Of a stretch of 64,000 bases of DNA, positions 12,281 to 56,500 are shown in pieces. The translations under genes and the position numbers were made by a program. A model generated the notes under the pieces. That model had not been told where the DNA came from. It ran no database searches and worked only from the letters and a program-made list of their open reading frames with translations. Positions within the stretch are counted from its first letter, which is position 1; each line of letters starts with the position of its first letter. The DNA comes from Branchiostoma floridae (taxonomy: Eukaryota; Chordata; Leptocardii; Amphioxiformes; Branchiostomatidae), in NCBI RefSeq assembly GCF_000003815.2, contig NC_049990.1, positions 9,935,539-9,999,538 on the forward strand, written 5' to 3'.

Positions 12281-15200
12281 ATGTACTTAGCAAGATGTGA
12301 GAGGAAATCTGCTGGGCCGATGTTTTTTCTGCTCCTGTCAGCTGGGTACGGAGCTTCAGATGGTCCTGCTATCCCGTGTATGACAGTAGAGTGGCAGGCG
12401 TGTGTAACCTTCGAAGACGTGCTTGGTAATTTGATCAATGTAAATCTGGGCACATGTGTCTTGTGCAAGGGCTTTAATGCGGATTTTTCCAAGGGCAGTC
12501 CTCCATTGCTTACGAAGGTCTCCAGATCAACACATCTGGCAATAAGAGGGCATGCATTTGGTGTCCTCTCGGCAGGGAAACTAGCCTCCCTTGATCATTC
12601 AGTGGTCAAAACTCTGGCTCTGGTCGATGCTTTCATCACTGATATAGAAAACGACACCCTGAAGAACTTTACCAATCTTGTCAGGCTGGGCTTAGTCTTC
12701 AACACATTTACACATGTCAGGCAGGGCTGGCTCTCCGGCTTAGCGAACCTTCAGTACCTGATCTTGTCCAACAACCAGATCCAGCAGATAGAGCCAGGGA
12801 GCTTCGTGCACCTGTCTAACCTGCGTGTGCTCGACCTGGGGAACAACAAGCTGCAGGTTGTGGACCACGCTTGGCTTCGTGGGCTGAAGAGGCTGTTGTA
12901 CTTGTTCCTGGGATCTAACAAGATTCAGACAATCTCTCCAACTACATTCCAATATGTGCAACCGTACAGGCTAGATCTGAGTGGAAATGACCTGTCAGGT
13001 CTAGACAGGGAGGTCTTCAGGGGACATGTAAACCTGGGAATACTCCACATTGGTGGTAACAAGATGGTTTCTGTTCATGATGTGATGTCACATCCAGTGA
13101 TATGGAACCTAGGTATCTACACCGAATTCAGTTTTACAAACAATTTTGCTATAATTGTTAAGGTGCCCAAACTCCTTTCCTGTATCATGTATGATCAGGC
13201 AACATACGAGCTTGTAGTTGGGTGGACCTTTGATCCGTCAATTGTTGCGCCCAATGTCATTCAAGAAGAAATGCCTGGGGCCTCATGTACCCCTGTAAGT
13301 TGGTGGGAAAGTCATAACATTAGAAAGATCTCTGTCCGGCCACCAGTTGTCATCATTGCCACTGATAGCCCTGCAGCAGCTGAACAGGTCCCTGACATAT
13401 CCGGGCAGTGTAGACAGGTTTGGAAACAAGATGTGGGCATTACAGTAGTCTTGGGAAGTGATGCCAGCTTCCGGCTACTTTCAATGAGCACAGGGCGCAA
13501 TGCAACAAAGAGGGCTGTAGCCATGGCGTTAAATGTGCCAATACAAAACACACGAACACCCAGCACCAAAATCCCAAAGCACACCTCCAACACAAGTACC
13601 ACCTATGTGAACACTGAGAACATAACCTGTATTCTGATCAGGAAACCTGGCTTCACGAAGTTAAACTTAAACATCTCTAATGTGCCTGTTCAGCCTCCTA
13701 CAACAGTCACAACTGATGATGACGAAGTTAGCAGGATACGTAATTATACGATGTTCCCGTTTTTGCAATTGAGAAACCAATCTACAGTGCAGGTCAGCAC
13801 CAAACTGCCTGCCCTCCCATATACTAGATACAAGATGCGCCCGTTTTCAGAACCAAAAGACTGGTCTGCCTTACCGGGCAGCTCCAAGCTTTCATCAGAT
13901 GGTGTTCTCATTCCTGTTATCTCAGCAGCAGCTGCTTTGCTTCTATTGGCCCTTGCAGTATTCATGTGGAGGGTGTGCTCTGCAAAGCAGCGCAAAGCAG
14001 CTTTGACAGCCAGCAATGATGCACACATATGGACAATTCCTCCAGGCATTGCCTTCCCCGGTTTGTTCAGGTCTGCCTCTCTCCCTACATTTGCCCACAA
14101 GGCGCCGTCGGAGGACACTGCCTCCTGTACTTCACTGCCAACTGTCCTCTATTCCATTGAGCCAACCTACAGCGAGATCCCTGATAGTGTAGCTGCAGAA
14201 CAGTCCCTCTCTGACCTCCCACATACCTACAGTGTGATCCCAGACCTTGATGGGGAGCCCATGTCTTTTTATGCCGCTGCTGCTGAAGTTTTGCCCATCA
14301 TATACAATGGACAGAATCAGCACCTGGCTTACCTGCACAAGGGTGCAGCTATTTCCAAAAGACACCAGTCTGGACAACACATTGCTGCATATGGAGAGCA
14401 TCGACAGACCAAAGCCCAGTGTGGGACGGTCTATAGATGTGTTGATAACGACAAAGACAGAGATCTTGGCAACCCTCCAATGCCCTCAAACATCTACTGG
14501 CCATTGAATATCCCAAGGAAGAGAATCTATAGCATGCCGCGGCGTGTGTCCCTTCCTCTTGTCACCCTGCCAAACACCTACTGGCCATGGGAGATTCCAG
14601 AGAAGGGAACCCGTGAGACACCAGGGCGTGCGTCCCTTCCCCTTGTCACACTGCCAAACACCTACTGGCCTTGGGAGATTCCAGAGAGGGGAACCCGTAA
14701 GATACCAGGGCGTGCGTCCCTTCCCCTTGTCACCCTGCCAAACACCTACTGGCCATGGGAGATTCCAGAGAAGGGAACCCGTAAGATACCAGGGCGTGCG
14801 TCCCTTCCCCTTGCCACACTGCCAAACACCTACTGGCCTTGGGAGATTCCAGAGAAGGGAACCAGTAACACACCACGGTGTGCATCCCTTCCTCTTGTTA
14901 CACTACCAAACACCTACTGGCCTTGGGAGATTCCAGAGAAGGGAACCAGTAACACACCACGGTGTGCATCCCTTCCTCTTGTTACACTACCAAACACCTA
15001 CTGGCCTTGGGAGATTTCAGAGAAGGGAACCCATAACACACCACGGCGTGCATCCCTTCCCCTTGTCATACCACCTAACACCTACTGGCCTTGGGAGATC
15101 CCAGAGAAGGGAACCCGTAACACACCACGGCGTGCATCCCTTCCCCTTGTCATACCACCTAACACCTACTGGCCATGGAAGATCCCAGAGAAGAAGACCC

Positions 15201-15490
15201 GCAACACCCCACTGTATATGCCCCCCTCCAAACTACCAAACACCTACTCGCCATGGAAGATTTCAGAGAAGGGAACCCGTAACACACCACGGCGTGCGTC
15301 CCTTCCCCATGTCACACTACCAAACACCTACTGGCCATGGAAGATTCCAGAGAGGGGAACCCGCAATACCCCACTGAATACGCCCCCCTCCAAACTACCA
15401 AACACCTACTGGCCATGGGAGATCCCAGAAAAGGGAACCTGTAACACACCACGGCATACATTCCTTCCCCCTGTCACACCACCTAAGTGA
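12281..15490 (+). CDS. LRR transmembrane receptor with tandem cytoplasmic repeats, truncated by a LINE
   Basis: Single-exon frame of 1069 residues. The start at 12281 has A at -3; an inner ATG (12320, MFFLLLSAGYGAS) looks more like a signal-peptide start. About five leucine-rich repeats span residues 125-270 (for example LQYLILSNNQIQQIEPGSF, LRVLDLGNNKL). A Ser/Thr-rich stalk with N-glycosylation sites follows. A membrane helix (PVISAAAALLLLALAVFMW) sits near residues 538-560. The tail has two TYSxIP tyrosine motifs near residues 630-660. The C-terminus is an array of 28-residue repeats (from residue 733) with core LPNTYWPWEIPEKGT. The TGA stop at 15488-15490 is supplied by an inserted LINE, so the present C-terminus is not ancestral. 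Amphioxus has many LRR receptors; the ligand is unknown. Confidence 0.85.
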   Translation: MYLARCERKSAGPMFFLLLSAGYGASDGPAIPCMTVEWQACVTFEDVLGNLINVNLGTCVLCKGFNADFSKGSPPLLTKVSRSTHLAIRGHAFGVLSAGKLASLDHSVVKTLALVDAFITDIENDTLKNFTNLVRLGLVFNTFTHVRQGWLSGLANLQYLILSNNQIQQIEPGSFVHLSNLRVLDLGNNKLQVVDHAWLRGLKRLLYLFLGSNKIQTISPTTFQYVQPYRLDLSGNDLSGLDREVFRGHVNLGILHIGGNKMVSVHDVMSHPVIWNLGIYTEFSFTNNFAIIVKVPKLLSCIMYDQATYELVVGWTFDPSIVAPNVIQEEMPGASCTPVSWWESHNIRKISVRPPVVIIATDSPAAAEQVPDISGQCRQVWKQDVGITVVLGSDASFRLLSMSTGRNATKRAVAMALNVPIQNTRTPSTKIPKHTSNTSTTYVNTENITCILIRKPGFTKLNLNISNVPVQPPTTVTTDDDEVSRIRNYTMFPFLQLRNQSTVQVSTKLPALPYTRYKMRPFSEPKDWSALPGSSKLSSDGVLIPVISAAAALLLLALAVFMWRVCSAKQRKAALTASNDAHIWTIPPGIAFPGLFRSASLPTFAHKAPSEDTASCTSLPTVLYSIEPTYSEIPDSVAAEQSLSDLPHTYSVIPDLDGEPMSFYAAAAEVLPIIYNGQNQHLAYLHKGAAISKRHQSGQHIAAYGEHRQTKAQCGTVYRCVDNDKDRDLGNPPMPSNIYWPLNIPRKRIYSMPRRVSLPLVTLPNTYWPWEIPEKGTRETPGRASLPLVTLPNTYWPWEIPERGTRKIPGRASLPLVTLPNTYWPWEIPEKGTRKIPGRASLPLATLPNTYWPWEIPEKGTSNTPRCASLPLVTLPNTYWPWEIPEKGTSNTPRCASLPLVTLPNTYWPWEISEKGTHNTPRRASLPLVIPPNTYWPWEIPEKGTRNTPRRASLPLVIPPNTYWPWKIPEKKTRNTPLYMPPSKLPNTYSPWKISEKGTRNTPRRASLPHVTLPNTYWPWKIPERGTRNTPLNTPPSKLPNTYWPWEIPEKGTCNTPRHTFLPPVTPPK
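14478..15486 (+). repeat. Coding 84-bp tandem repeat, 12 units before the LINE insertion
   Basis: Twelve units of 28 codons (two have 26) encode PNTYWPWEIPEKGT plus TPRRASLPLVT-like segments. Units 5 and 6 are identical at the protein level, suggesting recent unequal crossover. Because the period is a multiple of three, a second frame also stays open (14544-15377); I treat that as a shadow. Confidence 0.9.
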
Positions 15491-26054: not shown

Positions 26055-26279
26055 CCGGTACCCACCCATACGAAGAATGGTTTTAGCAGTTTGGTACCAT
26101 AGCTGCCTCTTTTAACTGTTTGGTACCCTAGTTGCACCTGTTTAGCCGTTTGGACTGGTGGACTGGCATGATACGTTTACAGTATCAATCTTAATTCCAC
26201 CATTATGATCATAAATTGTGACCACTTCTTTGCTTAGCTCAACACACAAAGCAAATGCTTTCCTGTACGGAATCAGTTC

Positions 26280-26780
26280 GCTCTGTCGAATAGAGCTCGC
26301 TCGCTCGCTTCTTCGCACACAGCTCGCTCACTCGTTCGCACACAGCTCGCTCGCTCGTTCGCACACAGCTCGCTCTCTCGTTCGTTTGCACTCAGTTCGT
26401 TCGCAAACAGCTCGCTCGCTCGTTCGCACACAGCTCGCTCGCTCGTTTGCACACAGTTCGCTCGCTCGTTCGCACACAGCTCGCTCCCCCGTTCGCACAC
26501 AGCTCGCATACACGAGCGAGCCATGTGCGAACGAGCAAGCGAGCCGTGTGCGGACGAGCGAGCGAGCCCTGTAGCTGTGCGAACAAGTTAGCTGTAAGCG
26601 AGCGTGCTGTCTGTGAAGGAGCAAGTGAGCTGTGTGAGAACAAGCGAGCGAGCGAGCTCTGTGCTAACGAGTGAGCTGCGTGCGAGCGAGTGAGGTATGT
26701 GCGAACGAGTGAGCGAGCTGTGTGCAAACGAACAAAAGAGCTGTGGGAGAACGAGGCAACAGAAGGAGGTAGCGAGCTGT
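26280..26780. repeat. Palindromic minisatellite of GCTCGCTCGTTCGCACACA units
   Basis: About 230 bp of direct repeats of a 20-28 bp unit (GCTCGCTCGTTCGCACACA) switch near 26512 to about 260 bp of its reverse complement (TGTGCGAACGAGCGAGC). The whole tract is an imperfect palindrome of repeats. All six frames stay largely open, producing SLARS- and ERASEL-like peptides with no meaning. Confidence 0.9.
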
Positions 26781-26839
26781 GTGCGAGACCTCTGAGGGCT
26801 TGAAAGCTTTGGTGGCCTTTTGGTACAGGTGAACATTAT

Positions 26840-28420
26840 TGAACATTAATTATGCAAATGATATGCGAAATAATTTAAATAAATTATCACAAAATGTGTT
26901 TAATTACTTGGAGCAATCAAGTATTATAATTTATGTAAATTAGGACCTTATTTGCATGATTTATGCAACTGATACAAATTAGGAACATTTTTATGCATAA
27001 TTTATGGAAATAAGGACCTTATTTGCATTACGTTTAAAATTTTCCTAATCTTTATAAATTTACAAATGAGGCCCTAGTTTGCATAAATTATGCATGAAAT
27101 GTTCTAATTCGTATAGATGATGCAAATAAGGTCCGAATTTCCATAAATTGTGCAAATAAGTACATAATTTGCATAATTTTATATTTATTTAAGGTCCTGT
27201 TTTGTAAATTAGGACCTAATTTGCATAATTTATGACAAAAACAATTTGCAGATGTGTACAGGGTCATTTTGGCAAACTCTATTGTTCAATCATCTTTGTG
27301 TCCTGAATCTTTGAGCAAACATGCCTCGGCAGAGGAATAAGACTGCTCTGGCATACCATTTTATTGATGAATACATGTACTTGTATATGACTATAGACAA
27401 AAAAATTTGGCAATTTCATTCTTTGATCTATCCCACCCAAAAGGAATCAGAAGCACACTGTAATTGTTTCATGATAAACCTGGATTGGACAGGGGGTTGG
27501 GTCAAAGAAACCTGGATCGGGCAGGAGGTTGGGTCAAACAAATCTGGATTGGATAGGGGGGTTGGGTAAAAATAATCTGGATTGGACAGGGTAGTTGGGT
27601 GAAGATAATCTGGTTTGGACAGGGGGGCCGGGTAAAAATTGAAACCTATTGTTGTCTTATTTTTATTACTCAGTTACCTCCATGAAATGTCATGGACTCC
27701 GAGGTTATATTTTACCCTGTGTTTGTCTGTCTCAAGAACGGCTGGGTGAATTGGTTTCGTAATTGATGTGTTGGTAGTGTGTGATGAAAGGTGGACATGA
27801 TTAGATTTTGGGCCCCCTAGCGGCTTCCTTTGGTACTGCAGCGCAACTTCCGAGTTTGCTATCTCGTGTTCTGAGCAAGCTATGGTCACGATTTTGGGGT
27901 GTTAGATAGCTCTTGTGCTCAGAAATAAGTGACATAACAATTATGCAAAATAGGAGTTCATTTGCATAATCAATGAGAATATTCTATCATAGCAGTTTTT
28001 TTCTATGTATCTCTTGTCCCGGACGTGATATGGTCTTGACATTTGGCTGGTAGATAGCTTGCAGTGTCATGACAAAGTGGGGCAGGTTTGAGCCCCCTAA
28101 CATTCAATTTCGGAACTGCAGGGGGGTTTTGTCAAGACATTCCAAAAACTGCAGAAAGAATTGACGGATTGGTATCATTTTAGGCATGCAGGTAGCTTAG
28201 GCAAAGATGTTTATAATGCAGATGAGGACTTAATTTGCATGATTAATGAGGAAATTGTATAATTCCATTGTTTGCAATAACTGGACTTCAATAAATGTAA
28301 CGCTTGTTAATTTTGATAGGCGGTATATAAATAGATACCAAATAAGGTAATGAGGAACTTATTTGCATAATTTATGAAGAAATTGCAAAACTGCTTTATA
28401 ATGGAAATTTTATATTTGTG
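26840..28420. repeat. AT-rich tract with many ATTTGCAT/ATGCAAAT octamers
   Basis: Repeated segments such as TTTGCATAATTTATG and GACCTTATTTGCAT occur on both strands, densest at 26850-27240 and scattered to 28400. The octamer equals the POU/Oct site, but here it belongs to a dispersed repeat. No gene seen. Confidence 0.7.
27478..27640. repeat. Minisatellite, five units of 31-34 bp
   Basis: Units share CTGGATTGGACAGGG, then GTTGGGTCAAA, with modest divergence between copies. Confidence 0.85.
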
Positions 28421-35817: not shown

Positions 35818-38609
35818 CTAGCACCCCTCCAGCCTGGTCAGCAGCTCCGCTCGCAGCAGGGCCAGGATCTCGTGCAGCCAGTGGAAGAACACGAAGTCCC
35901 GGATGTAGTGAGTGTACAGACTGTCTCCTACGTCTGGGAGGGGGACGGGGTCTGCTGTCCACCCCTGTGGTACAGTGGGATCGCCCAACTGTCCTGCCAC
36001 CGTCATCTACATCAAAAGATCAGAGATGACAGACTTTACCCCCTTGTCGAAAAAGAGAGACTGTAGATTTTAGCTGATATAAAATGTAACCTCTTTACAC
36101 CTATACTTAAGTTAACTCAATGCATTTAGCCCATGTTGGGCAGGAATGTGCAACAAAGATCATTGTCTAAATGACCCTTCTAAATTCCAACAACAAATCA
36201 TAAATGGAAAACTTCACCCCTTTAATTTAAACTTCAGAAACAATCAAACGGACAGGCATGTCAAAAACAATACGATACCTCACAGTGTCAATTCGGTTTA
36301 ACATTCTTTGACTGACGTAAAACGTCACAAATAGTAACATGTTGAATTTTGCAAGATGGATTCATTTCAACAATTCACACGTGTGCCAAGCTATAACTAC
36401 GTACTGGTTTGGAAATTCTGACTAAGTTTTCATCAGTTGTGATCGTGGCGGTCATTCTTACCGTAAGGTTAAGCTTATACAGCAGGTTGTTCAGGACGCT
36501 GTTGGTGTCACGCATGGACTGCCGCAAGGAGGCGCTGTAGCCGTCTAGATGACGCGCTTCATGAATGACAGTTAGGACAGTCACCCGGTAACGGCTCAGG
36601 TTACGGAACAAGGGGACTAGCCCGGTGTCATCCTGAATAATGGAACACATGCACATTAAAACAGTGCTCAAGTTATGCATTTCCTCAAAGTTTGTACAGA
36701 CAATTGCAAGTCAAATGCATGCGGGGCAGGAATACAGCCATGATGTGAAAAGTTTGCCTTTGAAACTTCGGTAGATGGAACTGAAGCCTGGTGACCATTT
36801 CTACGGAGCGGCTTAGGGGTGTTTTACCGACGAAGTTCTTTAGTTAACTGTCAGTGTCAGCATATCTTTCTTTCTGGTTGAAACAACCCCGTAAAAATTC
36901 CACAGCGTGTGCCAAGCAAGGGATCAGTCATACAAGTCTGCGTATTGACATTATTTTATCTCAGGTAAACTTCGAGGTCGACCAAGTATTATTTTCGGAC
37001 ACCAGTCTTTATAACGTTGGGTCAAAGTAAGAAATAATTCTTCCCGCAAAATTTACCTAAACCAACAAAATGTCAACACGTAACTGATACGGGCTTTAAC
37101 TTTGTCGTGTGACATGCCGACTACTTATGAACTGGTCGGGGGCAGGAAACACTTGGCGTAATCTTCAGGCAGATTTATCGGTGGCATAAGACAGTTGCAC
37201 AAGGGTGCACCCGGGGTGCAAACCTGCACACCGGGGCTGTAACCGGCCAAGGAGTGTCCATTTGCTTTAGGTAGACATGAAGATGGACAGTTGCTTTACC
37301 CATCTATAGCAACAGGGACTAAATAACTTATTTTGCGGCCACTGGCAAATCTGTCTGAAGGTTATTACACTCCCAGAACAATGAGTTACGAGGGACTCCC
37401 GATATACAAGGTACAGTAATAAACAAGGCTAAGGGGATTCCCCAACAACTTGGACGACAAGTTTTCTTTTTCTTCCGGCAACAACATGTTTTGGAATAAA
37501 CCACTGTTTGATGTCGCAGTGCACGTAAAAGAAAGGTTACCAGTGCGTTCGATAGCTAAAGACTCAAGACATTTTACCCACAATTCTTCAGCAAAACAAC
37601 AACAACAGCAACAACAAACAATGCCTCACCTGAAAGTAAGCAGCAGTGGGGAGCTCCTCCCAAGCGATTAAACCGGTGTCGTAAGTCCTAGAGCAAAAAA
37701 CGTCCTGTTTCTGTTGAATAAACACAACGAACACACATCAGCATCTACGTATACACATGGTATTACTCGTATATGTACTTGGAATTGTTTTCAACAGAGC
37801 ACGATTATAGAGAGTATGTCGTCAAAATGATCGAAGAAGTTGGAAGGAACTGACTCCTGCGATGCAACACAAATAAAACATGTCGACGTTGTACATGAAA
37901 CTATATATTTTGATGTTCAGCTTTGTAGATCCAGACACCGGAAACTTAAACCTGAAACAAAGTCGAGGTAGAAGAACGGAAACTACATCGCTTGTTTGTG
38001 ATGCATTGCAGATGTAACTGACGTTTCCTGAACTTGAGTAACAAAGTCACACCAGGATGCATGCAAGATGCAAACCTTTGCAAATTTATCCTGTATATAT
38101 ATGTCCTCCTGTGCGTACTTACCATGATTGTCATGGTATTGTTGGTATGTATGATTGTTCTCTCCGTCAGCTGGAGGTCTTGCCGGAACCCTCTCCTCTG
38201 ACACGGTCGGTAAGGGTTGAGGTTTGCAGAGCGAGTCTGTCGGTGCGCTGTTCCGGAGTGCCCCGCGGCCGGAAGGGCAGATGCCGCCTGGACAACCGGC
38301 ACGAAGAGCAGCGTCCACAGCAGAGTTTCTGGAGACAAATGAATTGTGGTGTCATGGTGATAAGTCTCTAAAATACTAATAACTTTCGAAAAAGACCTGA
38401 TAGCCAAAATTGGCTGGTGAGCTAGGCGTTAGCCACAGCGCAAAAAAAAACACCCAACGCATGTATCGAGACGAGTAGGCGTGGCCGGGTTTGCCTCAAA
38501 AGGCATGAGTCACTAGCTATAGAAAAGGCATTTCTCTCCGCCCACACTACTAGCACTGCAAAATATATAAAAGAAAGCATGCATCTTCACCTTTCCGCTG
38601 TGAAGACAT
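35818..38609 (-). CDS. Candidate IL-6/LIF/CLCF1-family four-helix cytokine
   Basis: Five coding exons in transcript order: 38591-38609, 38123-38328, 37630-37710, 36462-36632, 35818-36006; intron phases 1, 0, 0, 0; about 221 residues. The 19-nt first exon plus exon 2 give a clean signal peptide (MSSQRKETLLWTLLFVPVV, then QAASA). Helix A candidate: FRQDLQLTERTIIHTNN. Exon 3 is the A-B loop (VFCSRTYDTGLIAWEELP). Exon 4 has amphipathic B and C helices (LFRNLSRYRVTVLTVIHEA; SLRQSMRDTNSVLNNLLYKL). Exon 5 has a D helix (IRDFVFFHWLHEILALLRAE) ending LEGC and TAG 35818-35820. Size, signal peptide, exon count, the tiny first exon and the phases match long-chain helical cytokines (IL-6, G-CSF, CLCF1). 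A minimal RxxR site (RQTR) lies at residues 36-39. Identity is inferred from architecture, not strong similarity. The exon 3 acceptor could also be six bases later. Confidence 0.68.
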
Positions 38610-38746
38610 GTGACAGCTGAGGTCTCAGGTAAATGTAGACTTCGGCCAGGTGCAAGCACCTCCAGAGAATTCTCGTGTGCATACTGCCCTGCACACACGT
38701 CCATGTCGGCTTTATAATGCACACTGCCTGTTTACGACCAAGAGCT

Positions 38747-41271: not shown

Positions 41272-41502
41272 CTAAACAGATGTCTCATTCTTTTTCTTGA
41301 CCTGGCTCAAGAAATGCTCGCGCTGTTCCTTCATCGTCATGCCAACGTCGATCAAGTCTTGTTCCGTGATGTCGTCTAGAAACTCCAGCCGGTCCCAGCC
41401 GGCGCGCACCAGCTTGTCGTGGTACACGATCAGACCAAGCTGGCTCAGCCAATCAGCAAGCTGCTGCTCGTGATGCTGTGTGGTCCGTGCAGGTGGTGAC
41501 AG
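41272..41502 (-). CDS. INPPL1: INPPL1 exon 27: SAM domain and C-terminus
   Basis: QLADWLSQLGLIVYHDKL, then GWDRLEFLDDITEQDL and VGMTMKEQREHFL form a clear SAM domain, ending NETSV and TAG. In SHIP2 the SAM domain pairs with EphA2, ARAP3 and others. Partner choice in amphioxus is unknown. Confidence 0.93.
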   Translation of the reverse strand: MSPPARTTQHHEQQLADWLSQLGLIVYHDKLVRAGWDRLEFLDDITEQDLIDVGMTMKEQREHFLSQVKKKNETSV

Positions 41503-44500
41503 CTGATGGAGTAAAAAAATGTCAGACTTATACAATGTAACTTTGAACCTAAATATCAGCAAATAGTCATTCCTTGAAGATACAAATTGAACTGTATTGC
41601 ATTGTTTTTTAGGACAAAGTCAACAGCTGTGGTAAAAATGGACACAAATTATGAACTATGGAAATCTGGTACTGTCCATTCAAATGATGGAAGGATCACT
41701 GAAGTGCAAGGGAAACTAGAAGTGACAACACAACATTACCGGAATATCCGATACAGAAGCAGTAGAAGTCCTGTTGCCTCTACTCTTCATTGGTAGCGGA
41801 GGTGGAATGTCCAAGTTAGCCTTATTGTCTTCCTTTGTGACTCTTACAACAGGCGGTGGCTTGTAAGGGGCCACAGGAGGAGCAACAGATGAGTTCTGGT
41901 CCTTTGGTTCTGCCACAAACTTCCTGTCTCGTGGTCGTCTCTCTGATGCCGACCGAGACGACGACAGCCTTGGGGGAGGTTTTGGCGGCCGGACGTCCAT
42001 AGGGTCACCTGATCGGTCACTGGAGCGTGACCTCTGCTTCCTTGTAATGACTGCGTCGTCAACCTTGCTGCCAGACGACTGTCCGGTACCCACCTCGCGC
42101 TCTAAGGAACTACCCCTCCTCCGAGGGGTTGGTTTGGGTTTCTTCCGCTGGGCGTCGGTCAGCTGCAGCCCTTCCGGTGGCTTGTCGTCCACCCCGCTGG
42201 TGAGGAAGTACATCTCGTTGGTGGCAGTCAGAGACGAGGTGCTGCTGACGGGTTTGTGTTTGTGGACCGTACCATCCAGGGGGTTGCTGAGGGCGGGTTG
42301 TAGGTGGCGGTGGCCGGCAACCGGTAGGACGTGGTCCGAGGTGTCCTCAACCATCTCTCCGAATGAGATGAGCTCTGTGTTATAGTAGGGTAGCAAAAAA
42401 TTACCTTCAATTACATTTCCAGTCCATTTATGTTATCTGTCTGTGACCTGTTTTTGACAAGACCCTGGATACAACTAAAAATGTGAGAACACAACAAATA
42501 CGTAATTGTATACAATAGAAACAATACCTGACAAAGGTGACATCAAGTGACATCAAACACACTAAAACTTGTAAAAACTGGCCTCTACTAAAGTTTAATT
42601 TTCTGGTGATGATGATCAAGAGGAATCAAACGATAATAGCCTCACCATAGCTTCGGGACATCTCTCTCTGTGATCGTATCCTCTGGTCTCCCTTGACATG
42701 CATCCAACCACTGCAAAATGATACTTCTTTGTAATGCAGTAACTAACATTTTCCATGAAATGCTATGGTAATAATTAGAATGATACATTATATAATACAA
42801 TATGTTCACCCATTAATACATGCTTCGCAAAATTTTGATCACTATATATTAGACACCTGTATTACATAGATGGAACAAATACCTTTAATAGATTGTAGGA
42901 CCAGGGTTTTCCCCACACATAGATTCTATTCCATCTTAGCAACCCACTCATCTAATGATTGACCTAGGACAGGCAATGATTAGTATCATATCATTCTACT
43001 TTCAACCATACCTGAGAGTCCCTGTGCACTCGCCCAGATGTGTGATGAAACTGTCAAACTGCTGAGGCATTGAAGCGATCATGTTCTTCAGGGACAGCAC
43101 ACATTCACCTAACAAATATACAGCATACATACGGAATGAATTTTAGCTTAGAGATACAATACAAGCTTTTCATTCCACTGCCATAAAAAAGCTTTTGTCA
43201 TGGAGTCGTTTTTGGAGCAAGTACTGTTATTGTGCACATAGCACAAGAATAACACATACTAGAAGATAATACACTTTTTTAAAATTTCCTTTTCCATTGT
43301 GGTATAAGACCAAACATTTGCTTTGTGTACTGAAGCAGTCAGTTACCAGTAGGTAGTTAAAAGCAGTATGTGCCATTTTAAAGTATTTGGTATGTCTGGG
43401 TGGGGATTTGATCCTAGGGTTTTGTTTACCGTATGACTCGTCGCTGTCTGCTGACTTGACTGACAGGAGCAGGTGTTGTTCCTCCAGGTACTCCCAGTCA
43501 GAGATGAGGGGTGACAGCTGTGGGCAGGTGATGGACACAGGTGTGGGGATTAAAAAAACTATTCTTGGCAGTTGGCTACTCACAGTAGAGAACATTTCTG
43601 TATCACAAATCACAGTTATAAGTGTAAAACAATTATCCGCAGACTCATGCAAAGAGTCTCATCATCAATATCACAATTGGTACATGTACATACATATACT
43701 TGAATGTATCTAACTTAAATTTGCTTTATTCCTCATAACACTCACTCATATGGAATGAAGATATTGTAGAGGGCCATTGTTTCAATAATCAATCATATAG
43801 AAAGAATACAGAAGATGGGAATATAATCCCTGGAACAAGCACCTGCTGAAACAACTTTTGCACATCAAGAAAGAGCAAATGCATATAAAACCATTTGTCA
43901 TTGTAAAGGTCAAAGGTGATACCCTTATGTGTTCTTAAGGGGTTACTGCCGACCAACTAATACAGAGTATTCCTACCAATGGCAGGTGACTACTGCTCCA
44001 TGAAGCTTTGATGTTCCCTCCATCCCTCAGCCCTTCTACACATGTGCTCTGGGATGGTCCTACAGGGCAGAGATAAAACTATGGTCATAGATAATACACA
44101 CATTACACTACTTGGGAATAACATCAGTCAGAGAGTTCAGGTTGATGTCATATAGTGACAAAGAATAAGGCAAAACTTACCCTCCAGACAAGTGGAATGG
44201 ATCTCCAGATAGAAGCTAGTTTTGCTGCTAGTTTTTATCTGTATGAAAGAAGACATGATTACTGATCACATCTCATCTCATAGCATTACACCTTAATCTT
44301 CTAGCTATTACATTAGCATGAAGCATAAAACCTGAGTAACTGGTTGAGTCCTTACCTTGGCATCCATATGTTTGAACACAATCTCCACTTTCTTGTTGTC
44401 TGCCCCACCAGTGCCACCCAGATCTGGGAGTTGATGTATACAAGGCAATTAGAGATCATGATCATAGCACCCCCTCCAAAGTTGAAAACTCTCTCTCATG

Positions 44501-47500
44501 ATGGTAAGGGCTATCTGACAGAACATACTGAAACTGCACTGCAGAAACACACAAAGACACACACACAGAAAGACAACAAGGACAGGTAGTACTAAATATA
44601 GTTTACATACTATTCTACACATATAGTCAATGCCTATGCAGTCTCATAGTTCATAGTTGAATGATGAAATTACATGTACGTCAAGAATACACTGCATTAC
44701 ATGTAGAACACAACTTGTCTTCACTAAGACAAAATCAGTGGGAGGTGGTCAGACAGACATGATGCCCACCTTTTTTAGAAACATACTGTGTGGTGATCCC
44801 CACATCAAAGGATGCAAACACAGGGGAGTGATCGCTGGTTACAATGTCCTCTGTGCAACCTGAGACAAGAAAAAACGAGATATTGTTTAATAATATGGTA
44901 AAACTACCTTATGAACAGGGCAAACAGATATGGTGTATCATGAAAGAAAGCCTCAAAGCAGAAAGTTGTAAACAGGGTCCAAAAAGCGTTATATATCCAC
45001 ACATCAATATAATATTCCACAGGCAGATAGACATACATGTGACCGGAGGTTTGTTTTTTGCTCATTATATCTCTGTGCACTTGAAAGTTATCTTAAATTC
45101 TCCTTCGGGCCAACCTCATCGCAACTGACGTTCCGATTGGGGAGGGGGGCAGTATTTGAGCCGTGCCATCTCAGCTGGTTTTGCTTTTCATTTGTGATGC
45201 GATATGAGACGGTGTCACATTGTTTTGCTTGACTGTGAATCGTAGACTATATTTAGCTGTAATATCTGTTGTTTTTTCGTAAAGAGTTTGCTGCATTCCT
45301 GTTGTGTATTGGTATGCAAATTAGGCAAAGACACTTGCTGGTTTCCAAACTGAAACGTTAATTGCATTACCGCCGGACTGGCGACAGAGTTGAGTTGTCT
45401 GAGTTGGCAAACCTTTCCTGGCTGTTGACAGTGCTATTTCTGCCGTTCGTGATTTTTATTCAACAAACATTTGAGAGGAAACAGTCCTCAGACCGGGATC
45501 CACCCGTTTTCTGTCGGTGGAGGTTTGCGCCTCAGACAGCGCCGCTCCATGCCCATGCAAGGTTCAGCTAGTTTTGCTTTTCATTTGTGATGCGATATGA
45601 GACGATGTCACATCGTTCTGATTTATTGTGAACCGTAGACTAAATTTAGCTGTATTATTTGTTCTTGTTCGTAAAAGTGGTACCTAATTTCCGGCTGTGT
45701 ATTGGTATGCAAATTAGTCAAAGAACCCTGCCGAACTTCAAGCTGTAACGTTAATTAAATTAGCACTGCATGCAGTAGCTGTAGAAATAATTGTGCAATA
45801 CGCTTTGAACTACCGTGTATTTGTTATTGTTTTCCTGTATGATTGCAAGTAGCAATAACTAGACCATGCTAGCTGTGAAAGGAGTTTGTCGTGTTGTGAA
45901 GGGGGTAGTAACCCTTGGTCTTCCTGTGACATTACTTGCTAGTATACTACTGTTAGCGGTGTTACCACGGCCAGTTGTTCTCCCTAAATGGGATAAGAGT
46001 ACTAGCATTGTAAACGCAGAGTCAGGAACATGGATTACTCAGTCTCCCAACCTCGTAAAACTCAACCCTGGTCTGCTCGGAGTAAGGTCTCTTGCACCGT
46101 CAACTACTTGTACAGACAGGCGTAGGCAAACTGTTAACATTCTTGTTTGTACCACACTACTGCTGGCTGGAGATATTGCCCCAAACCCTGGCCCAGTTGT
46201 GGATGGACTGCCTCACTGGAGAAAGGGCCTGGTGTACGCCTTCTACAATGTGGTCTCTCTCTCGCGACATCTACATGAGATCCAGCAGTTACTCCTGAAG
46301 AATACCCGTATACATGTACTAGGGCTAACTGAAACTCGCTTAAGTGACACCATTCCAGACACTCTCGTGGAGGTTAGCGGATACACCTTGTACAGGAAAG
46401 ACAGGGACCGGCATGGCGGGGGTGTGGGTGTATATGTCAAACAGACTATTCCAGCCCAGCGTCGACATGATCTTGAGCAGGCGGACGTCGAGGTTTGCTG
46501 TGTGGACATCAAGCCAAACAAGGCCCGTAAAACTCTGTTGGCTTGCATCTACCGCCCACCCAAAGCTGGCTCTGAATGGAGGGACTCTGCAGAAGGACTT
46601 GTACACAAACTCAACGCAACTGCTGAAGAAGAAAATGCAGAAGTCATAATCATGGGGGACTTCAATTCAGACTTGTTAAAATCAACCCAAGCGTCATCTG
46701 TGGAATTCCTAATGAGATTGTACCAGTTAGTACCTATCATACTTCAACCCACCCGCATAACAGAGTACACAGAATCGTGTATTGACAATATGTTTGTAAC
46801 AAACCCAGACCGCTTCAGATCAAGTGCAAGTGTGGCATGGGGACCGTCGGACCACAACCTTATCCTGGCCTGTGCACAAGCAGGAAGAGAGGCATGCGGT
46901 ACACGCTGGTGTGAATACAGGTCTTACAAGCAGTACACCCAACAATCTTTTATTGATGGACTCAAGTCAGTTCACTGGGATACAGTATTAGACTGCACTG
47001 ATGTAACGGATGCTTGGGATGCTTTTAAGGATATTTTCCTGAATGTAGCTGACAAATTCGCTCCGCTGTGCAAGAGGAGAGTGAGGGATAACAACACTGT
47101 TGCTCCTTGGATGACGGACAGGGTAAAAAACATGATGGGGCGACGCGACGCAGCTAGACGCAAAGCAATCAAAACCAAGGAGGGAAAAGACTGGGAGGTC
47201 TACCGGGTGATAAGGAACCAGACAACATCAGCAGTCAGAAAGGCAAAGAAAATCCACTTTGCTGAAGCTGTGACAGAAGCGAAAGGAGATCAAAGCCTCA
47301 TGTGGAAAATTATTAACGCCTTCACAGGGAAATCCAAAGGGAAGTGTCAAGTTCAGAACTTGGCGAGACCTGACGGTACCAATATATCGGACCCCAGCGA
47401 AATGTCTCAAGAGTTCAATAGCTACTTCGCAACTTGTGCTACAAGCCTTGCCGATAGTATGCCAACCTCCCAGAAAGATCCTCTCCGACACATACCGGAG

Positions 47501-50500
47501 CCTAGTACAGAGTTCAGCTTTGAGTCAGTTGACGAATCGACAGTGCTAAGTGAACTTCTCAGATTGAAAGCAAAGAAGGCCACTGGGCTGGACAATATCC
47601 CCTCAAAACTGCTTAAGGACTCCGCCCCTGTCATTGTCAGACCACTGACACACATATTTAACCTATCACTTGCCACGGGAGAAGTCCCTAGTGACTGGAA
47701 GACGGCAAAGATTACACCCATTTACAAGACCGGTAATCGAACTAATGTGGCCAACTACCGTCCTGTCTCTGTACTGAGTGTAACATCCAAAGTGTTGGAA
47801 AAACTCGTTGGTAACCAAGTATCACGCTACATGGCCCAGAACAACCTTCTCACGGTACACCAAAGTGGGTTTCGGAGAAACCACAGTACTGCCTCTGTAG
47901 TTTTGAAGATTGTGGAGGATATTAGGTCGGCCAATAATAGTCGCCAGGTCACAGTTGCTCTCTTCCTAGACTTACGCAAAGCATTTGACACTGTGAATCA
48001 TGCCATTCTGTTGAGTAAGCTCAAGAAACTGGGTTTTGATAGGGATGCAACAAAATGGTTTACATCATACCTCTCTGGTCGCTCACAATGCACTAGTCTG
48101 CAAAGTCAATGTTCAGAGATGGCTGCAGTCACCTGCGGGGTACCACAGGGGAGCGTACTTGGTCCCTTGCTGTTTTGTTTATATGTCAACGACATGCCAC
48201 AGGTTCTAGAAAAATGCAAAATACACTTGTATGCAGACGACACCGCAATCTATTACTCGGCGGGCACGATGAAAGAGTGTGAAGAGGCAGTTTCCCAGGA
48301 TATGAAGAGAGTGTCAGACTGGTTAATTGATAATAGACTTTCTCTCCATCATGACAAGACAAAGTCTATGCTATTCGGGGTTCCTCAGAAGCTGAGACAT
48401 GTTGGGACAACAGTTCAGATCACAGACGGTGTTAACATTTATTAGCAAGTTAACACTTTCAAATATTTGGGCATCACTCTAGACCCATCGCTCCAGTGGT
48501 CAGCTCACATAACAAATATCACGAAAAAAATATTCAGTGGCCTCAGTGCAATGAGACGTGCAAAACCCTACGTAACAAAAGAAATATTACATACTATGTG
48601 TCAAACTTTGTTGTTGTCGCACTTGGACTACTGTGGCGCGGCGTGGTTGCCAAGCCTTGTACAGGGCAAGAAAACACAAATGCTGCAACTCGACAGGCTG
48701 CTGTTTAGAGCTGCAAGGATGATTACAGGCTACACACTCCGGGATCATGTCCCAGTTGGTAAACTGTTAGCGGAGGCGGGGTTGGTGTCGGTGAGAAATC
48801 GGGCGGAAAAAATCAGTCTGGCCACAGTTTTCAATGCTGTACGAGGAAAAGCCCCTTTGTACATATCTGACATGTTCAGGTGGAAGTCACCACCAACTAT
48901 AAGAGCTCGCACCCGCACGGCTGTTAAAATGTTCGCTGACTGGGACCCTCACCAGTTGAACTGTCCCGTAGCAAGCCTGAAGTGCTACGAGGGAAGCTTA
49001 AAATCTTTTGGCCCCCAACTGTGGAACAAACTGTCACTGAAGCACCGCAAGACTCTGGGACTGGTTAAGTTTATCAAGGAACTGTGAGGTCTAGATGGAA
49101 ATGACAAGTGAAATTGTGAGTTTTGATATGTCGTTTTGTGGTTATGCACTATTGTATGTGTTATTGTAATATTGCAAAGTTTTAAATTGTATTTTTGTTT
49201 ACCCAGCATTGCCTGAAAAACAGGTTGTTATGTACCTGAGTGTTACTGCTGGTAAAATAAATAAACTGAAACTGAACTGAAGACCTTATGACATGACATG
49301 ACATGAATGTAGCATAGGTGGTGACACCAGAGGAATATCAGACTTTGTCTGCATCTGCTATTCAAGTTGAATATCACAAAAAGTTTGGATGGTAGAGATA
49401 GTTCAAGCTAAAGATAAGTCATAACACAGGGATAACATCAAACTACAATCAAATTCTGATATCTTCAGACTGTCCAACTTCAGGCATGACAGGAAGAAAC
49501 AGTGATTGAGCAAAGACGTACCGTAGGATAAACTGGTAATGTACGTGTCGGGAAACGATCGCCACATGACGCGATCACACCAGGAAGGAACATTGATGCG
49601 GATCTTGAGAGAAATAAGAAAAAAGAGATATGATCATTGTGCACAGTAAGGGTATGAGATGATAAATGTGATTTTAAGATGTTACACAACAGGGTTACTA
49701 AACAAAACTGGACAAAGCTAGTCTAAGGTCTGGAGTCTGTCTGCTCTATAAGCATATTCATGGTGTTACTTAAAATGTATATTGTGCCTACTTGGATGTT
49801 TGCAACAGTTCTGACATCTATCTACTAAAAGTAAACGTACTTGTGGACAGAAATACTAGTAAGTAAAAATGTTGAAGTTACCCCAGTCTTCTTAAACTTC
49901 TGCCATGTGTATTCCTTCCGGTGTCCTCTTTCATAGCGATAAGTTGGAGGAAAACTTATATTTTCCTCATCTGGAGAAATGATAAAGTAAAGTTCAGAAG
50001 AAAGATAGATAAGCCATGTTTTCAAACATGCTTCAACAATTTAAAATAAATAGCAGACTAAACAAATGGAACTGAAGAATCATGTTATGAGTAACTTGAA
50101 GCAAGTGCCCTCAATGATATTTTTCTCCACAAATACAACATCCTACTTACTGAATCTGACAAAAACCCTGCCCTTGTCCTGTTCCACCTTCAGCTGATCA
50201 TGTGTCAAAAGGCTTTCATAGTCTTTCTCATTCACCTTCTTCAGGATTTCCTATAAAAAAAGACATACAACAACTATCAGCACAACTACAATAGCTCAAA
50301 AGAAGACTCCTTGCATTGCTTTTTTATGTATGATTTTTAACACAACAAGTACTACTAGCCACTTGGTCTGCTAGCATGTCAAAGTTTTTTAAACAAAGTA
50401 TGAAACAACATTAAAGCATCAAACTGCATGTTAATAACCCCAAAACTTCCATTTAGCATGCAATCATCATAATGCATTCCATAGATCAACTCCACATGTA

Positions 50501-53500
50501 GATATTTGTAGATAAGATTTTCCAAATCTATAGTATTACTAGTGCACATATTACTTGAACTAATCAGGAATATGTACCATATTGTGTGTTAAGAGTCAGT
50601 TTGGAGGTTCCCATCCCCCATACCATTCTCACCTGAACAGGTAGGTCCAGCCTGTAGTTCAGGTCTCCTAAGAAGAAGACGTGGTGGAACTGTGTTGTGA
50701 CATCAAACCCTCCAAGTTTCAAGTGTCCCAGGTTCAACCCCCTTAAGATGTCGTGATAGTTCTGATTCCGTCTGGAACCAAATCAAGAGTCATGATGAGC
50801 ATTCATAACTGTGGTGTCATGTGTGCCATAACTAGTAGAGCATTCAGCTCGGAATCTATAAGTCCCGAGTTCGATACCCACTGTGCCCCCAGCATTTGAT
50901 CCTTGGGAAAGGCACTTAATATGACTTTCCTCACTTCAGCCAGGTGTAAAATTGGGTAACTAACTTCGGTCTGGGAGGTAAAAGAAAAGACTACCTTTAC
51001 CTTCCGTCTGTACTGTGTATGTGGCACTGTTAATATAAGTTACTAACTTGACTGCAGTGCCACATTGTCGTCATCTGTCCAAAAGCAAATGGGAAAAAAT
51101 TATAAGGTGGCATGTGTAGTCCAGTGACCCTGCATCTGAACACTAATACAGAATGTAGTATCATGTGCACTGTTGAAACTTACCTGGCACATTTTTCACT
51201 GCCTGATGTCAGGTGACAGTTAACAAAACAGAAAGCTGTCCCCCAGAAGAGGAAGGAGATACCAACAGCTCCCTTGTTCCCTATGAAAAAAATAGATGGA
51301 GGTGGATGCTCAGAAAACAAATACATTGAAGTATTCTTAAACTGAAGCAGAAAAATGAGAGAGAGCAATCATTATTTAAATAGCTAGCCAATAATTTTTT
51401 TTACATTCTTGGAAAGATTTCATCACCAATACAATCTGTCCATTAGAAATGAGAATTCAGGTTTAATATTTAAGCAGGCTTATGCCAAAATCATACATTG
51501 AAGTGTTTTCATTTTCCCCTGACTTTTTACATACTCCATGCATTAACAAATCCCAAAGTGAGCTTGTAATTTTGGAATTGAATGTTTGATAAATAAAACA
51601 GTACAGCACAATGATTAAATCATATTCTTATTCATTACACAATAGTTCTGAAACATACCCAAAGCATTGGCTATACCAGTCTTGACAGAGCTTGTCTGTA
51701 CATGGCTGATCCTATGCTGGTGTTCAGGCTTGACCAGGACCACTAGGCGGATGCCCCACAGGGTGCTAACTGCAACCTACAAAAAAGAAATGGCTTGTTT
51801 CTGCTTTACACAATCTTAGCACAACTTATCTAAAAGTAAAAGTCTGTCCCAGGCCTATGTTTTGGAATGAGTGAACATGCCTTCTTTCAAAGAAGCAGAG
51901 GTAGACCACGCAAAATGTACATCAACTTTGTGAAGATACTGGCTGCTCGGCTGAAGAACTGCCAAAGGCTATGGAGGATAGGGAAGGATGGAGGAAGAGA
52001 GTCATGGCCATCCGTGCAACCAGCAGGCCCTGATGATGATGATGAACATGTATTGCCTCAGTGCACACATTTCTCATTCACAGGCTTCAACCCAATATAC
52101 ACAGCACTTAGGAGCCTAGAATTCAGCACCAAGGACATTGTCAGGGCACAAGGAAACTTCACTATGCACTGTACACCCTACAATTGTTGTTCCCCCTGCA
52201 ACTGATTGAGTATGGCCACTCCTTTAACTTTGAACTTTGAACTTTATTAAAATCACCACTTTGCAGGCAATTTAGCCTGAATTGTGTTGGTGTTTACAAG
52301 CTTCGTTATTAAACATTGTTTAAAAAGTTATTACAATTTTAAAGGCATACTTTACATTGACTTATAATTTTGCTTAAAATCACAAATTACAGACGTTTAC
52401 TATACAATATTTGTAACAATGAGTTCGGTACACGTCATACGGATTTGATAGTGCGTTAATTGTCATTCAACAGAGCAAGGGCCCTGGGGATAAACGATTG
52501 CGAATGTCTGTTGGACCGGCTCAGTGGCAGCTTAAAACGGGGAGCCCGTCGTAGCTGGTACTGACACTCTGTAGCCGGCTGCAGGAACTCCTGGCAAGGG
52601 TGAGTGGCTTAGAGAGATGTAGGGATGCCCTCACAATCTTCCTCTACCCAGAACACCTCAGCTCCTGCCTGGAATTCATTACTTTTTTGTTTGCATGACT
52701 GCCTCGGATAATTCTTTGATACAGACAAATCAACTTTTATTCTTACATGTTATAAGCAGCAAGCTCACTGTCAATACACATCAATCAACCAATCAATCAA
52801 ACAACCAACCAACCAACCAACCAATCAGTTGATGAATCACATTTAATACAGTAAATACAGTCCTTACTGGCTGGTACTTGATCTCGCAAAGGCCCCATAG
52901 CACCAGCTGAAGCCTCTGTACCCAGTCCTTCTCGCTGACAGCAGACTCCTGGGTGCCGATTACGTAGACGTCAAACGGTACCAAAGCGAAGGTTTCGTCT
53001 CTCGTCTTCCCCTGGCCTTGACACTTGAACCATGAGGAAATGTTGGAAGGAGCAGGGGCATCTCCTGGAAAATAACAACATGTAGTTCAGTCACTGTAAA
53101 ATTTTAAGGGGAGCAGCACTATATTTTTCTTTGCTGAACAGAGTATCATGCTTAACTACATATACTATCCCTGGTACCAAACTACCACCAAGGACTGTCC
53201 ATGGTACTAAACTACCATCATATACTGTCAATTGTGCTGAACTACCATCACACACTGTCCCTGGTACTGAAATACAAACACAAACTGTCCCTGGTACTGA
53301 ACTACCATCACATACTGTCCCTGGTACTGAACTACCATGACACAGTGTCCCTGGTACTGAACTACCATGACACAGTGTCCCTGACACTGAACTACCATCA
53401 CAAAGTGTCCCTGGTACTGAACAACCATCACACACTGTCCCTGGTACTAAACTACTATCAACCACCCCCTGGTATTGAACTACCATCACACAATCTCCCT

Positions 53501-56500
53501 GGTACTGAACGTCCACAGTCTATCCATGATACTGAACTACCATCACAAACTGAATCACTGGTAAAACAGAAAAATGTCGCTATGCCGGAGCCCGGCACAG
53601 GTGATCCAAGCCAACCAACCCACCCACCCCTTTTATTTCCAACAAAGTGCTTATGGTACCTTTACTTTTTTGTTTGCCTTTCAGGCATATGATAAATTTT
53701 GACAACAGTCAGTCCTCTTGATTATAAGCTTTCAATGAAGCAAACTGACATAAATCATTCTAATCCTCAAAGAGGACTTCTATCAGGATGAAATGGTACT
53801 GCAGGAAACTGCACAACAATGGCTGCATTTGCCTTGCAAAGCAAAAGTGGTATCCAAATCCACATTCAGCTAGCCCTGCCATGGAATTCTAATTTAGAAT
53901 ATACTAGTAAGTCCATGAAAACTAAGCTTGACAGGATAACCCTTCTCCTAAACGATCAAGTTCAACTACCAGCAGGCCCAAAATCAAACCTGAGCATCAG
54001 GCAGCCAGCACCAACAGGATTTCATGACAGGATTTCATGTTAATGACAACTAATAAAAAGGTCCTCTTGGATAGTACATATATAAGATTGGATAAAAACA
54101 CATACCCATGTTCCAGGTTCCTACAAAGACAGAGATTTGATCCACATCTTTGTCTTTAGAGTGGATGTTCTTCATATGCTGGATGAGCTGACAGAACAAC
54201 TCCCGGGACTAGAACAGAACAATTAAGTATAAGGCAGAATTTCTTTGTGGATATATTACAAGCAGAATGTAAGAGAACCCATACAGTATTTCTTGCATTT
54301 TCTTTTAATCATTAACATTGCCTGCATCCATCCTGGCCTGAGTGCAGATATAAAAATGCAGAAACATCACAAGCTATCATTACTTTTTATTGTAGTGTAA
54401 AAATAAATGAACGTTATTTACCCTGACATCCTCAAAAATGAAGTACTTTCCTTTCTGGTCCTCAATCTTAATTCCAAGTCTTGCCTTTGGAGACTTGACC
54501 AACTGCAAAACTAAAGAAAAATTACATGTCAATATGGTGAGGATCTTTTGGTATAAAATAAGTAAACATAATCAAATGCACTTGTGTCCCTAGGTTTGAG
54601 TTTTGAATCCTGGAGTCTGACAAGTATATAATTGGTAGGAATTACATGCTGTCCTTCAGAAGAAATGTGAAGCTTGATACTAAGATAGTCTTGTGTTTGA
54701 GCAAGCCTGAAAAATTATATCTTGTCTCAATAGAATGAATGAATGATGATTTTTTTATGTGTACTGTAGAAAGACATTGACCTATTTTTGTAGGCCATTG
54801 AGTTGGACATGATAACGATAAAGGAGTTTCAAAGAACATCAGTCTGTGTATCAGATACAGGATTACCACTGTAAACTTTTATGTTTTGCCTTACAAGGAG
54901 ATGCAAACTGGTAAAATTATGTTACTTTTCTTGTGTGTGAAGACTTCCTCCGGGTTCTTAGGGCTGCGGAGACAGTACAGCTTGCCATTCATGACGTCCA
55001 CCTTCACCATCAGCCGTGTGGACTTCATCGCACCAAGACTTTCCTGTCGTACCTTAGGGAAAGGAACAAACTTTGTTAGGGTCCAGAGCAAACTTTCTGA
55101 TGTAGAGAGAATACTGTCAAGTACTTCGAGGTTACAGGGATTTCAATGGAGTGTTTGAGTTTGTGGGTAAAAAAATAGTGACAAAAAACATTTTCACAGT
55201 GGATACAAGCTCACAGTGAAGAAGTCACCACAAAAACTGCAAAACATAAAAGTTCCAGTAACATTTTCCCTTTTCCCATAAATGTTGATAGAGTACAGGT
55301 TGTACCAGAAAATACAATTTTAACACACAAGCACAACAAGGTAAGTTGGCACAATAAGCTCATACATTTTGTATGTACGGTAATTCTGACCAAGAGTCTT
55401 AATGATCTCAAAAAATCTCTTCCTACCTCGAAAGTCTTGGGAGGGATGGAGGGTGGGGGTGACTTGGCCACTTCTCCCTTAGGGAAGTTTTCCTTGGTCC
55501 TGTTTTCACTTTCAGCTTCGGGTTGAGCAAATTCCTGCAGAACTCTGGAGGCCTACACACAACAACAACAGTTATCTTCCCAACAGTTCCTCAACAGCAA
55601 TCTGTCATCATGATGATGTTGTTTACAACCACAAGGCCTCAGACCTGAAATTTATGCTACTAGTAAAGTAATGTTAGAAAATAAACATGAAAACAGAACA
55701 ACATATTCCTTGCTACAGACAGTTATTGGGGTTGAATATAGACAGCCTTGTGTTTTCCTCCCGGATGTGGGTTTATAACTTTTCTATTTTGACCTTTTGC
55801 TAAAATTTCAATTAAAAACTTCTGAGAGGCAAGCTGATAAATTGAAGTGTTGCTAGGTTAAAAACAATGCTTGCTACTAAAGAAAAGTACTGTCTTCTGA
55901 TAAACAAACTCAACTAATTACTGCACAGAAATTCATGCACTGAAATGGAACAGAAGAAAGAATAGTTGTAAGGGAGTTCATGCTTTGAACTGCACACGCA
56001 CAGTGTGACGCATTGTGGGTAGTATGTGAAAGTTGAAGGCTCCAGGCACAAACATGGGTTTGGTATCAAGCAGGGTTTACATGATCTGTAAAATGGCCTT
56101 CATCATGGTAGGATTGCTAGTAGAGCAATCATAGGGAATTACGCTGAAGGAAGTGATCCTTGACCTCCACTAAGTGGCATCTGCCGTATAGGCTCGCCTC
56201 TTGCTTATCTTTTTATTGTAAAATTTCATAATTTTATTTCTCATCAAGAGATTCTATCTATGCGTCCAGCGTGTCCTAACTACTATGGCACACGATTCTG
56301 CTAGCAAACAAGCGCATCACCATGACGGTCGGTCTGTTTAATGGCCTTCACCTTTACCCCCTGTTAACTGGCTTATTGGGAAGGCATGAAGAACACAGGA
56401 GCTGTTTTTCCCACCTTTCTTTCCAAACTTGTAATGACTGTTTTACAGGTGGCCAGTCGCTCCAAAAGCTCCTGCAGGTCAAACTGCCCCTGGTCATCCT

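What the first reader, a model, noticed from the sequence alone, without database searches (positions are those of the whole stretch)
35818..38609. Candidate invertebrate-chordate IL-6/LIF/CLCF1-type cytokine gene
Seen: five splice-consistent exons encode a signal peptide and an all-helical protein of about 221 residues whose last exon holds a strong amphipathic D-helix (IRDFVFFHWLHEILALLRAE). Established: vertebrate long-chain helical cytokines such as IL-6, G-CSF and IL-11 commonly have five exons, a very short first coding exon and intron phases 1-0-0-0; human IL6 exon 1 also has about 19 coding nt. This gene shows the same pattern. Inference: a cephalochordate member of the gp130 or G-CSF cytokine group, which sequence searches miss because the family diverges fast.
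Basis: partly seen in the sequence, partly recalled or inferred. Interest (0 to 1): 0.9.

Follow-up and report, generated by a model that had tools for sequence, protein, structure and literature searches.

The report
Amphioxus family of helical cytokine genes
The stretch holds a real five-exon gene for a small, probably secreted helical protein, one of at least seven sister genes in this animal's genome that look like early relatives of vertebrate signalling proteins such as erythropoietin, growth hormone and interleukin-6, although which branch they belong to is not settled.

Summary
On the minus strand, five exons (19, 206, 81, 171, 189 nt; GT-AG introns; phases 1-0-0-0) give a 221-residue protein with a signal-peptide-like start. 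It is not chance: six sister genes in the same genome can be read with the same phases, a 19-nt exon 1 and a 171-nt exon 4. All seven have a TATA box 107-121 bases before the ATG, two invariant cysteines and an invariant sequon; dN/dS is 0.33-0.57. AlphaFold on single exons gives a helical hairpin for exon 4 and a 25-residue loop plus 36-residue helix for exon 5. With exon 3 as linker this fits the plan of long-chain class I cytokines.

The gp130 (IL-6/LIF/CLCF1) claim is open. Pfam and PDB searches find no cytokine; control cytokines also find few of their relatives in the PDB. One profile comparison picks CLCF1 out of 19 proteins (E 0.0019 uncorrected); HMMER does not. The exon plan fits EPO, GH and IL-6 alike (recalled). 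No full-length fold was run. A review mentions amphioxus helical cytokines without detail (PMC9010856).

The parts
38710..38716 (-). TATA box (TATAAAG), 107 bases before the ATG
   Evidence: a TATA box sits at -107 to -121 in 7 of 7 paralogs. The window gene has a second TATA-like site at -145.
38591..38609 (-). exon 1, 19 coding nt (MSSQRK + 1 nt), phase 1
   Evidence: a 19-nt exon 1 with a donor site can be read in 7 of 7 paralogs; in two of them the choice rests on a search for this length only
38123..38328 (-). exon 2, 206 nt: signal-peptide-like stretch, Cys49, helix A with sequon N69-N-T71; ends in phase 0
   Evidence: counterparts in six of six paralogs
37630..37710 (-). exon 3, 81 nt: A-B linker (KQDVFCSRTYDTGLIAWEELPTAAYFQ), phase 0
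   Evidence: counterparts of 51-66 nt, best-scoring candidates between exons 2 and 4, in six of six paralogs
36462..36632 (-). exon 4, 171 nt: helices B and C, phase 0
   Evidence: AlphaFold of the exon alone gives helices 5-28 and 34-56, mean pLDDT 79.1
35818..36006 (-). exon 5, 189 nt with stop: C-D linker and helix D, terminal Cys221
   Evidence: AlphaFold of the exon alone gives a loop 1-25 and a helix 26-61, mean pLDDT 95-98 over residues 31-60

Best explanation
A functional gene for a secreted long-chain class I helical cytokine, one of a family of at least seven in this genome. The exons give a signal peptide, helix A, a long linker, helix B, a short turn, helix C, a long linker and helix D. 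This long-short-long pattern is what an up-up-down-down four-helix bundle needs, and a disulfide between Cys49 (start of A) and Cys221 (end of D) would close it at the end where those two helix ends meet. It is probably N-glycosylated at N69. It most likely acts as an extracellular ligand that pairs class I receptor chains and switches on JAK-STAT. Shown: gene structure, paralogs, coding constraint, TATA box, helices of exons 4 and 5. Inferred: secretion (read by eye), the assembled bundle, the disulfide, glycosylation, receptor and signalling. The vertebrate branch it is closest to is not resolved.
For: Gene model with canonical splice sites. Seven paralogs that can be read with the same five exons and phases, exon 1 of 19 nt and exon 4 of 171 nt; exon-4 queries from two divergent members return the same seven places. 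dN/dS 0.33-0.57 in 21 of 21 pairs. TATA box in 7 of 7. Invariant Cys49, Cys221 and sequon N69-x-T71. Exon 4 folds as two helices and exon 5 as loop plus long helix; helix A has a strong 100-degree moment (43 of 5000 shuffles). [quoted passage not shown] one C15 member here is also 208 residues.
Against: No cytokine is found by Pfam (0 of 7 members), by phmmer with the window protein or by the seven-member profile against the PDB (20 sequences at E <= 10, none a cytokine; the best is initiation-control protein YabA at E 0.002, most of the rest influenza HA2 chains). Pfam models do recognise the vertebrate members tried: CLCF1, CNTF, LIF and EPO. No full-length fold was obtained. Helix D is not clearly amphipathic, helix C only weakly (325 of 5000), and the C4 copies carry three prolines in the helix B stretch. 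No expression data. A receptor-family search gave two hits below the family's cut-off, with no WSXWS-like motif in the loci fetched.
Confidence: 0.75

Rival explanations
1. It is specifically a gp130-type (CLCF1/CNTF/IL-6) ligand, so that subgroup is older than vertebrates.
For: hhalign of the seven-paralog profile (which kept 5 of the 7 sequences) picks CLCF1 out of 19 proteins: score 26.9, E 0.0019 for one comparison, against 17.9 or less for the other 18 and 19.8 or less for the reversed profile against 16 of them. The genuine CNTF-CLCF1 pair scores 27.8. Of 129 windows from E. coli open frames 0 reach 26.9 (max 20.1); of 300 block-shuffled CLCF1 sequences 1 does. The aligned part runs in register from helix C through the C-D linker into helix D. 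Each of the four paralog groups alone has its best match in the same CLCF1 stretch, though three of the four at background scores (14.0-14.7; C15 22.7).
Against: After correction for 19 comparisons the E-value is about 0.04, and CLCF1 was already named in the finding's title. HMMER without filters gives CLCF1 0.2 bits, 16th of 148 sequences and below decoy windows; LIF is first with 5.5 bits, E 0.1. Without the C15 pair the hhalign score falls to 17.9. Pfam's CNTF model recognises human CLCF1 with 24.0 bits but none of the seven proteins. CLCF1, CNTF and LIF lack the five-exon plan (recalled). The family PF06875 found nothing in the genome, but its control genomes were silent too.
Confidence: 0.27
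2. It is a class I cytokine of the EPO/TPO or GH branch, or a stem lineage outside all vertebrate subgroups.
For: Five exons in phases 1-0-0-0 with a short exon 3 and a 57-codon exon 4 are closest to EPO (13/146/87/180/156 nt, recalled). Cysteines just before helix A and at the C-terminus mirror EPO Cys7-Cys161 (recalled), and the invariant sequon near the end of helix A mirrors EPO N24 (recalled; the query letters show an N-I-T there).
Against: hhalign against EPO, TPO, GH and PRL scores 13.2-14.8, no better than the reversed profile (14.1-19.3). Control pairs such as EPO-GH also fail (11.2), so this is weak evidence either way. Pfam's EPO_TPO model recognises human EPO but none of the seven.
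Confidence: 0.48
3. A lineage-specific family of secreted helical proteins that is not a cytokine (for example a carrier or pheromone-like protein).
For: No library match to any cytokine; an all-helical secreted protein can have many roles.
Against: The combination of 1-0-0-0 phases, exon-to-helix correspondence, long-short-long linkers and length matches class I cytokines. In the PDB search, three true cytokines found few relatives: CNTF only CNTF, CLCF1 only CLCF1, EPO found TPO at E 0.49.
Confidence: 0.2
4. A gene-model artefact or a dead copy.
For: No transcript data were available, and the paralog models were built by looking for matching exons.
Against: Seven copies with open frames and splice sites, dN/dS below 0.6 in 21 of 21 pairs, and TATA boxes that were not used in building the models.
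Confidence: 0.02

Closest known systems
Amphioxus GH-like hormone GHl (GenBank KJ735508; PMC9010856 and PMC5376476, passages seen)
   Same: Amphioxus, reported as a type-I helical cytokine of 208 residues with low identity to vertebrate cytokines; one C15 member of this family is also 208 residues.
   Different: Its sequence is not held here. Its two published qPCR primers (from B. japonicum) have no match in this genome at up to 3 mismatches; against six of the seven genes the best primer match is 17 of 25. Whether GHl is one of these seven is untested.
Erythropoietin / thrombopoietin (PF00758)
   Same: Five exons in phases 1-0-0-0, similar exon 3 and 4 sizes, one Cys before helix A and one near the C-terminus (recalled).
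   Different: No sequence match.
CLCF1 / CNTF (PF06875, PF01110)
   Same: Weak in-register similarity of helix C, the C-D linker (W-T) and the start of helix D by hhalign.
   Different: Fewer coding exons (recalled); no Pfam match; HMMER gives no support.
IL-6 / G-CSF / IL-11
   Same: Five exons in phases 1-0-0-0; human IL6 also has about 19 coding nt in exon 1 (recalled).
   Different: hhalign scores 12.3-14.8, no better than the reversed profile.

Membership tests
Long-chain class I helical cytokines | Secreted, roughly 160-200 residues when mature, with a signal peptide | tested here: met
   Hydrophobic N-terminus read by eye from seven translations; precursors of 208-223 residues. No signal-peptide program was run.
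Long-chain class I helical cytokines | Four helices with long A-B, short B-C and long C-D connections | tested here: inconclusive
   Helices B, C and D with a 5-residue turn and a 25-residue linker by AlphaFold of single exons; helix A only by hydrophobic moment; full-length fold not run.
Long-chain class I helical cytokines | Five coding exons in phases 1-0-0-0 with a tiny exon 1 (recalled as typical) | tested here: met
   and readable in 7 of 7 paralogs.
Long-chain class I helical cytokines | Up-up-down-down left-handed bundle | not tested
Long-chain class I helical cytokines | Significant sequence match to a known member | tested here: not met
   In the PDB search three true members also found few relatives; Pfam did recognise the four true members tried.
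gp130 (IL-6/LIF/CNTF/CLCF1) cytokines | Use of the shared beta-receptor signalling chains (definition in PMC13203501, passage) | not testable with these tools
   Needs binding or signalling assays.
gp130 (IL-6/LIF/CNTF/CLCF1) cytokines | Closer sequence kinship to gp130 ligands than to other class I cytokines | tested here: inconclusive
   hhalign favours CLCF1, HMMER does not.
EPO/TPO family (PF00758) | Pfam EPO_TPO match | tested here: not met
   human EPO itself matches with 237.3 bits.

The most novel reading that the evidence does not exclude
Cephalochordates carry a family of at least seven true CLCF1/CNTF-like gp130 ligands on the ancestral five-exon plan, so the gp130 cytokine branch was already separate from the EPO/GH branch before vertebrates arose.
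Probability: 0.22. Interest if true: 0.85.

Novelty: new member of a known kind. Interest (0 to 1): 0.6.

Why it matters
Two surveys report IL-6-family cytokines only in vertebrates (PMC13203501, abstract and passages; PMC8226699, passages, which also notes Drosophila unpaired-3 as IL-6-like). A constrained family of at least seven class I-type cytokine genes in a cephalochordate, with the vertebrate exon plan, would give concrete sequences to test when and in what form the EPO/GH/IL-6 superfamily arose, and candidate ligands for amphioxus class I receptors such as the GHRl described in PMC9010856 (passages).

Tried and rejected
First exon boundaries out of frame, corrected. Pfam, PDB phmmer and profile searches for a cytokine: nothing. 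Viral contigs: none. GHl primers against the genome: none at up to 3 mismatches. One further exon-5 hit, on C13 (29% identity, E 0.71), was dropped: by eye its surroundings read like retrotransposon and simple-repeat sequence, with no matching exon noticed in the frames listed; the longer stretch fetched for it was not searched. PF06875 in the genome: none, control also silent. Rfam and tRNA scans of the window: nothing. No gp130-type cytokine gene of amphioxus was seen in eight paper searches. Passages of PMC4690019 and PMC9049855 were seen and added nothing used here.

Full report
What is there. The minus strand of 35818-38609 reads as five exons of 19, 206, 81, 171 and 189 nt with GT-AG introns in phases 1, 0, 0, 0, giving 221 residues.

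Why it is real. Exon 5 finds four relatives and exon 4 six, on contigs C4 (two), C6 (two) and, for exon 4 only, C15 (two). Exon 4 of a C15 member finds the same seven places. All seven genes could be built by hand: five exons, phases 1-0-0-0, exon 1 of 19 nt, exon 4 of 171 nt, proteins of 208 to 223 residues. These models were built by looking for matching exons. For exon 1, lengths of 10 to 31 nt were tried in five genes, with two or three candidate readings in four of them and none within range in the fifth; in that one (L018) and in the second C6 gene only 19 nt was then sought, with two candidates each. The more independent signs are coding constraint (dN/dS 0.33-0.57 in 21 of 21 pairs) and a TATA box 107-121 bases before the chosen ATG in 7 of 7, against 0.15 expected per 220 bases. 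Identity of the window protein to the others is 44-56%.

What it looks like. Forty-five residues are invariant, among them Cys49, Cys221 and N69 and T71 of a sequon. Folded alone without an alignment, exon 4 gives helices 5-28 and 34-56 (mean pLDDT 79.1) and exon 5 a loop of 25 residues and a helix 26-61 (pLDDT 95-98 over residues 31-60). Helix A at the end of exon 2 rests on its hydrophobic moment only (43 of 5000 shuffles reach it); B gives 140 of 5000, C 325 and D 746, so D is predicted as a helix but is not clearly amphipathic. Exon 3 is a linker of 17-27 residues. Long, short, long connections imply an up-up-down-down bundle, in which the start of A and the end of D lie at the same end, where Cys49 and Cys221 could pair. 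This step is inference; the whole bundle was not modelled.

Which branch. Pfam finds a cytokine family in 0 of 7 members; the profile against the PDB lists 20 sequences at E <= 10, none a cytokine, the best being YabA at E 0.002. Controls: in the PDB search CNTF found only CNTF among real relatives, CLCF1 only CLCF1, EPO found TPO at E 0.49, so silence there is expected. Pfam is less silent: its models recognise CLCF1 (PRF 34.1 bits, CNTF 24.0 bits), CNTF, LIF and EPO, which counts somewhat against close kinship with any of these. hhalign of the mature profile against 17 cytokines and two other helical proteins gives 26.9 for CLCF1 (E 0.0019) and at most 17.9 for the other 18. Real pairs give 27.8 (CNTF-CLCF1), 26.9 (LIF-OSM), 35.9 (EPO-TPO) and 76.0 (GH-PRL), but 19.1 (IL6-GCSF), 15.8 (CNTF-LIF) and 11.2 (EPO-GH). 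Nulls: 0 of 129 windows from 85 E. coli open frames and 1 of 300 block-shuffled CLCF1 sequences reach 26.9. Against this: 19 comparisons were made, HMMER gives CLCF1 0.2 bits (16th of 148), three of the four paralog groups alone score only 14.0-14.7, and the score falls to 17.9 without the C15 pair. The gene plan and cysteines point rather to EPO-like genes (recalled). I therefore leave the branch open; on rechecking, the Pfam control made me lower the gp130 reading slightly (0.30 to 0.27, and the novel case 0.25 to 0.22).

What is known. A review (PMC9010856, passages) describes amphioxus GHl, a 208-residue type-I helical cytokine, and says several more such genes exist and are quite divergent. 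These seven may be among them. Two surveys report no IL-6-family member outside vertebrates (PMC13203501, abstract and passages; PMC8226699, passages, which also cites Drosophila unpaired-3 as IL-6-like); PMC13203501 used BLAST at E <= 1e-5 and 30% identity, which would miss genes like these. No description of this gene family was seen in the eight paper searches, but the library lacks most subscription papers, and the original GHl paper was not seen.

How it most likely works. A TATA-driven, probably inducible gene makes a secreted, glycosylated, disulfide-closed four-helix ligand that brings class I receptor chains together and activates JAK-STAT. Secretion is read from the sequence by eye; the rest is inferred from class I cytokines in general.

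Noticed in passing
window 41300-43660, minus strand: The next gene upstream on the same strand has a SHIP1/2 second C2 domain and a SAM domain, so it is probably SHIP2 (INPPL1)-like (the SAM domain of SHIP2 is recalled). Human INPPL1 and CLCF1 both lie in 11q13 (recalled), a synteny lead only.
   Followed up: partly
window 45863-48442, plus strand: Endonuclease and reverse transcriptase domains in one frame, as in a non-LTR retrotransposon.
   Followed up: no
window 12251-15487, plus strand: Open frame of 1079 codons with leucine-rich repeats near its start; its end overlaps a stretch (14508-15374) that reads as tandem peptide repeats in another frame.
   Followed up: no
window 26200-26840 and 53090-53690: Stretches that read as short tandem peptide repeats in several frames on both strands.
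   Followed up: no
L017 and L018 (C15), L013 and L019+L014 (C6), L015 and L016 (C4): The six other family members come as three young pairs with 97%, 88% and 89% protein identity; no close sister of the window gene was found.
   Followed up: partly
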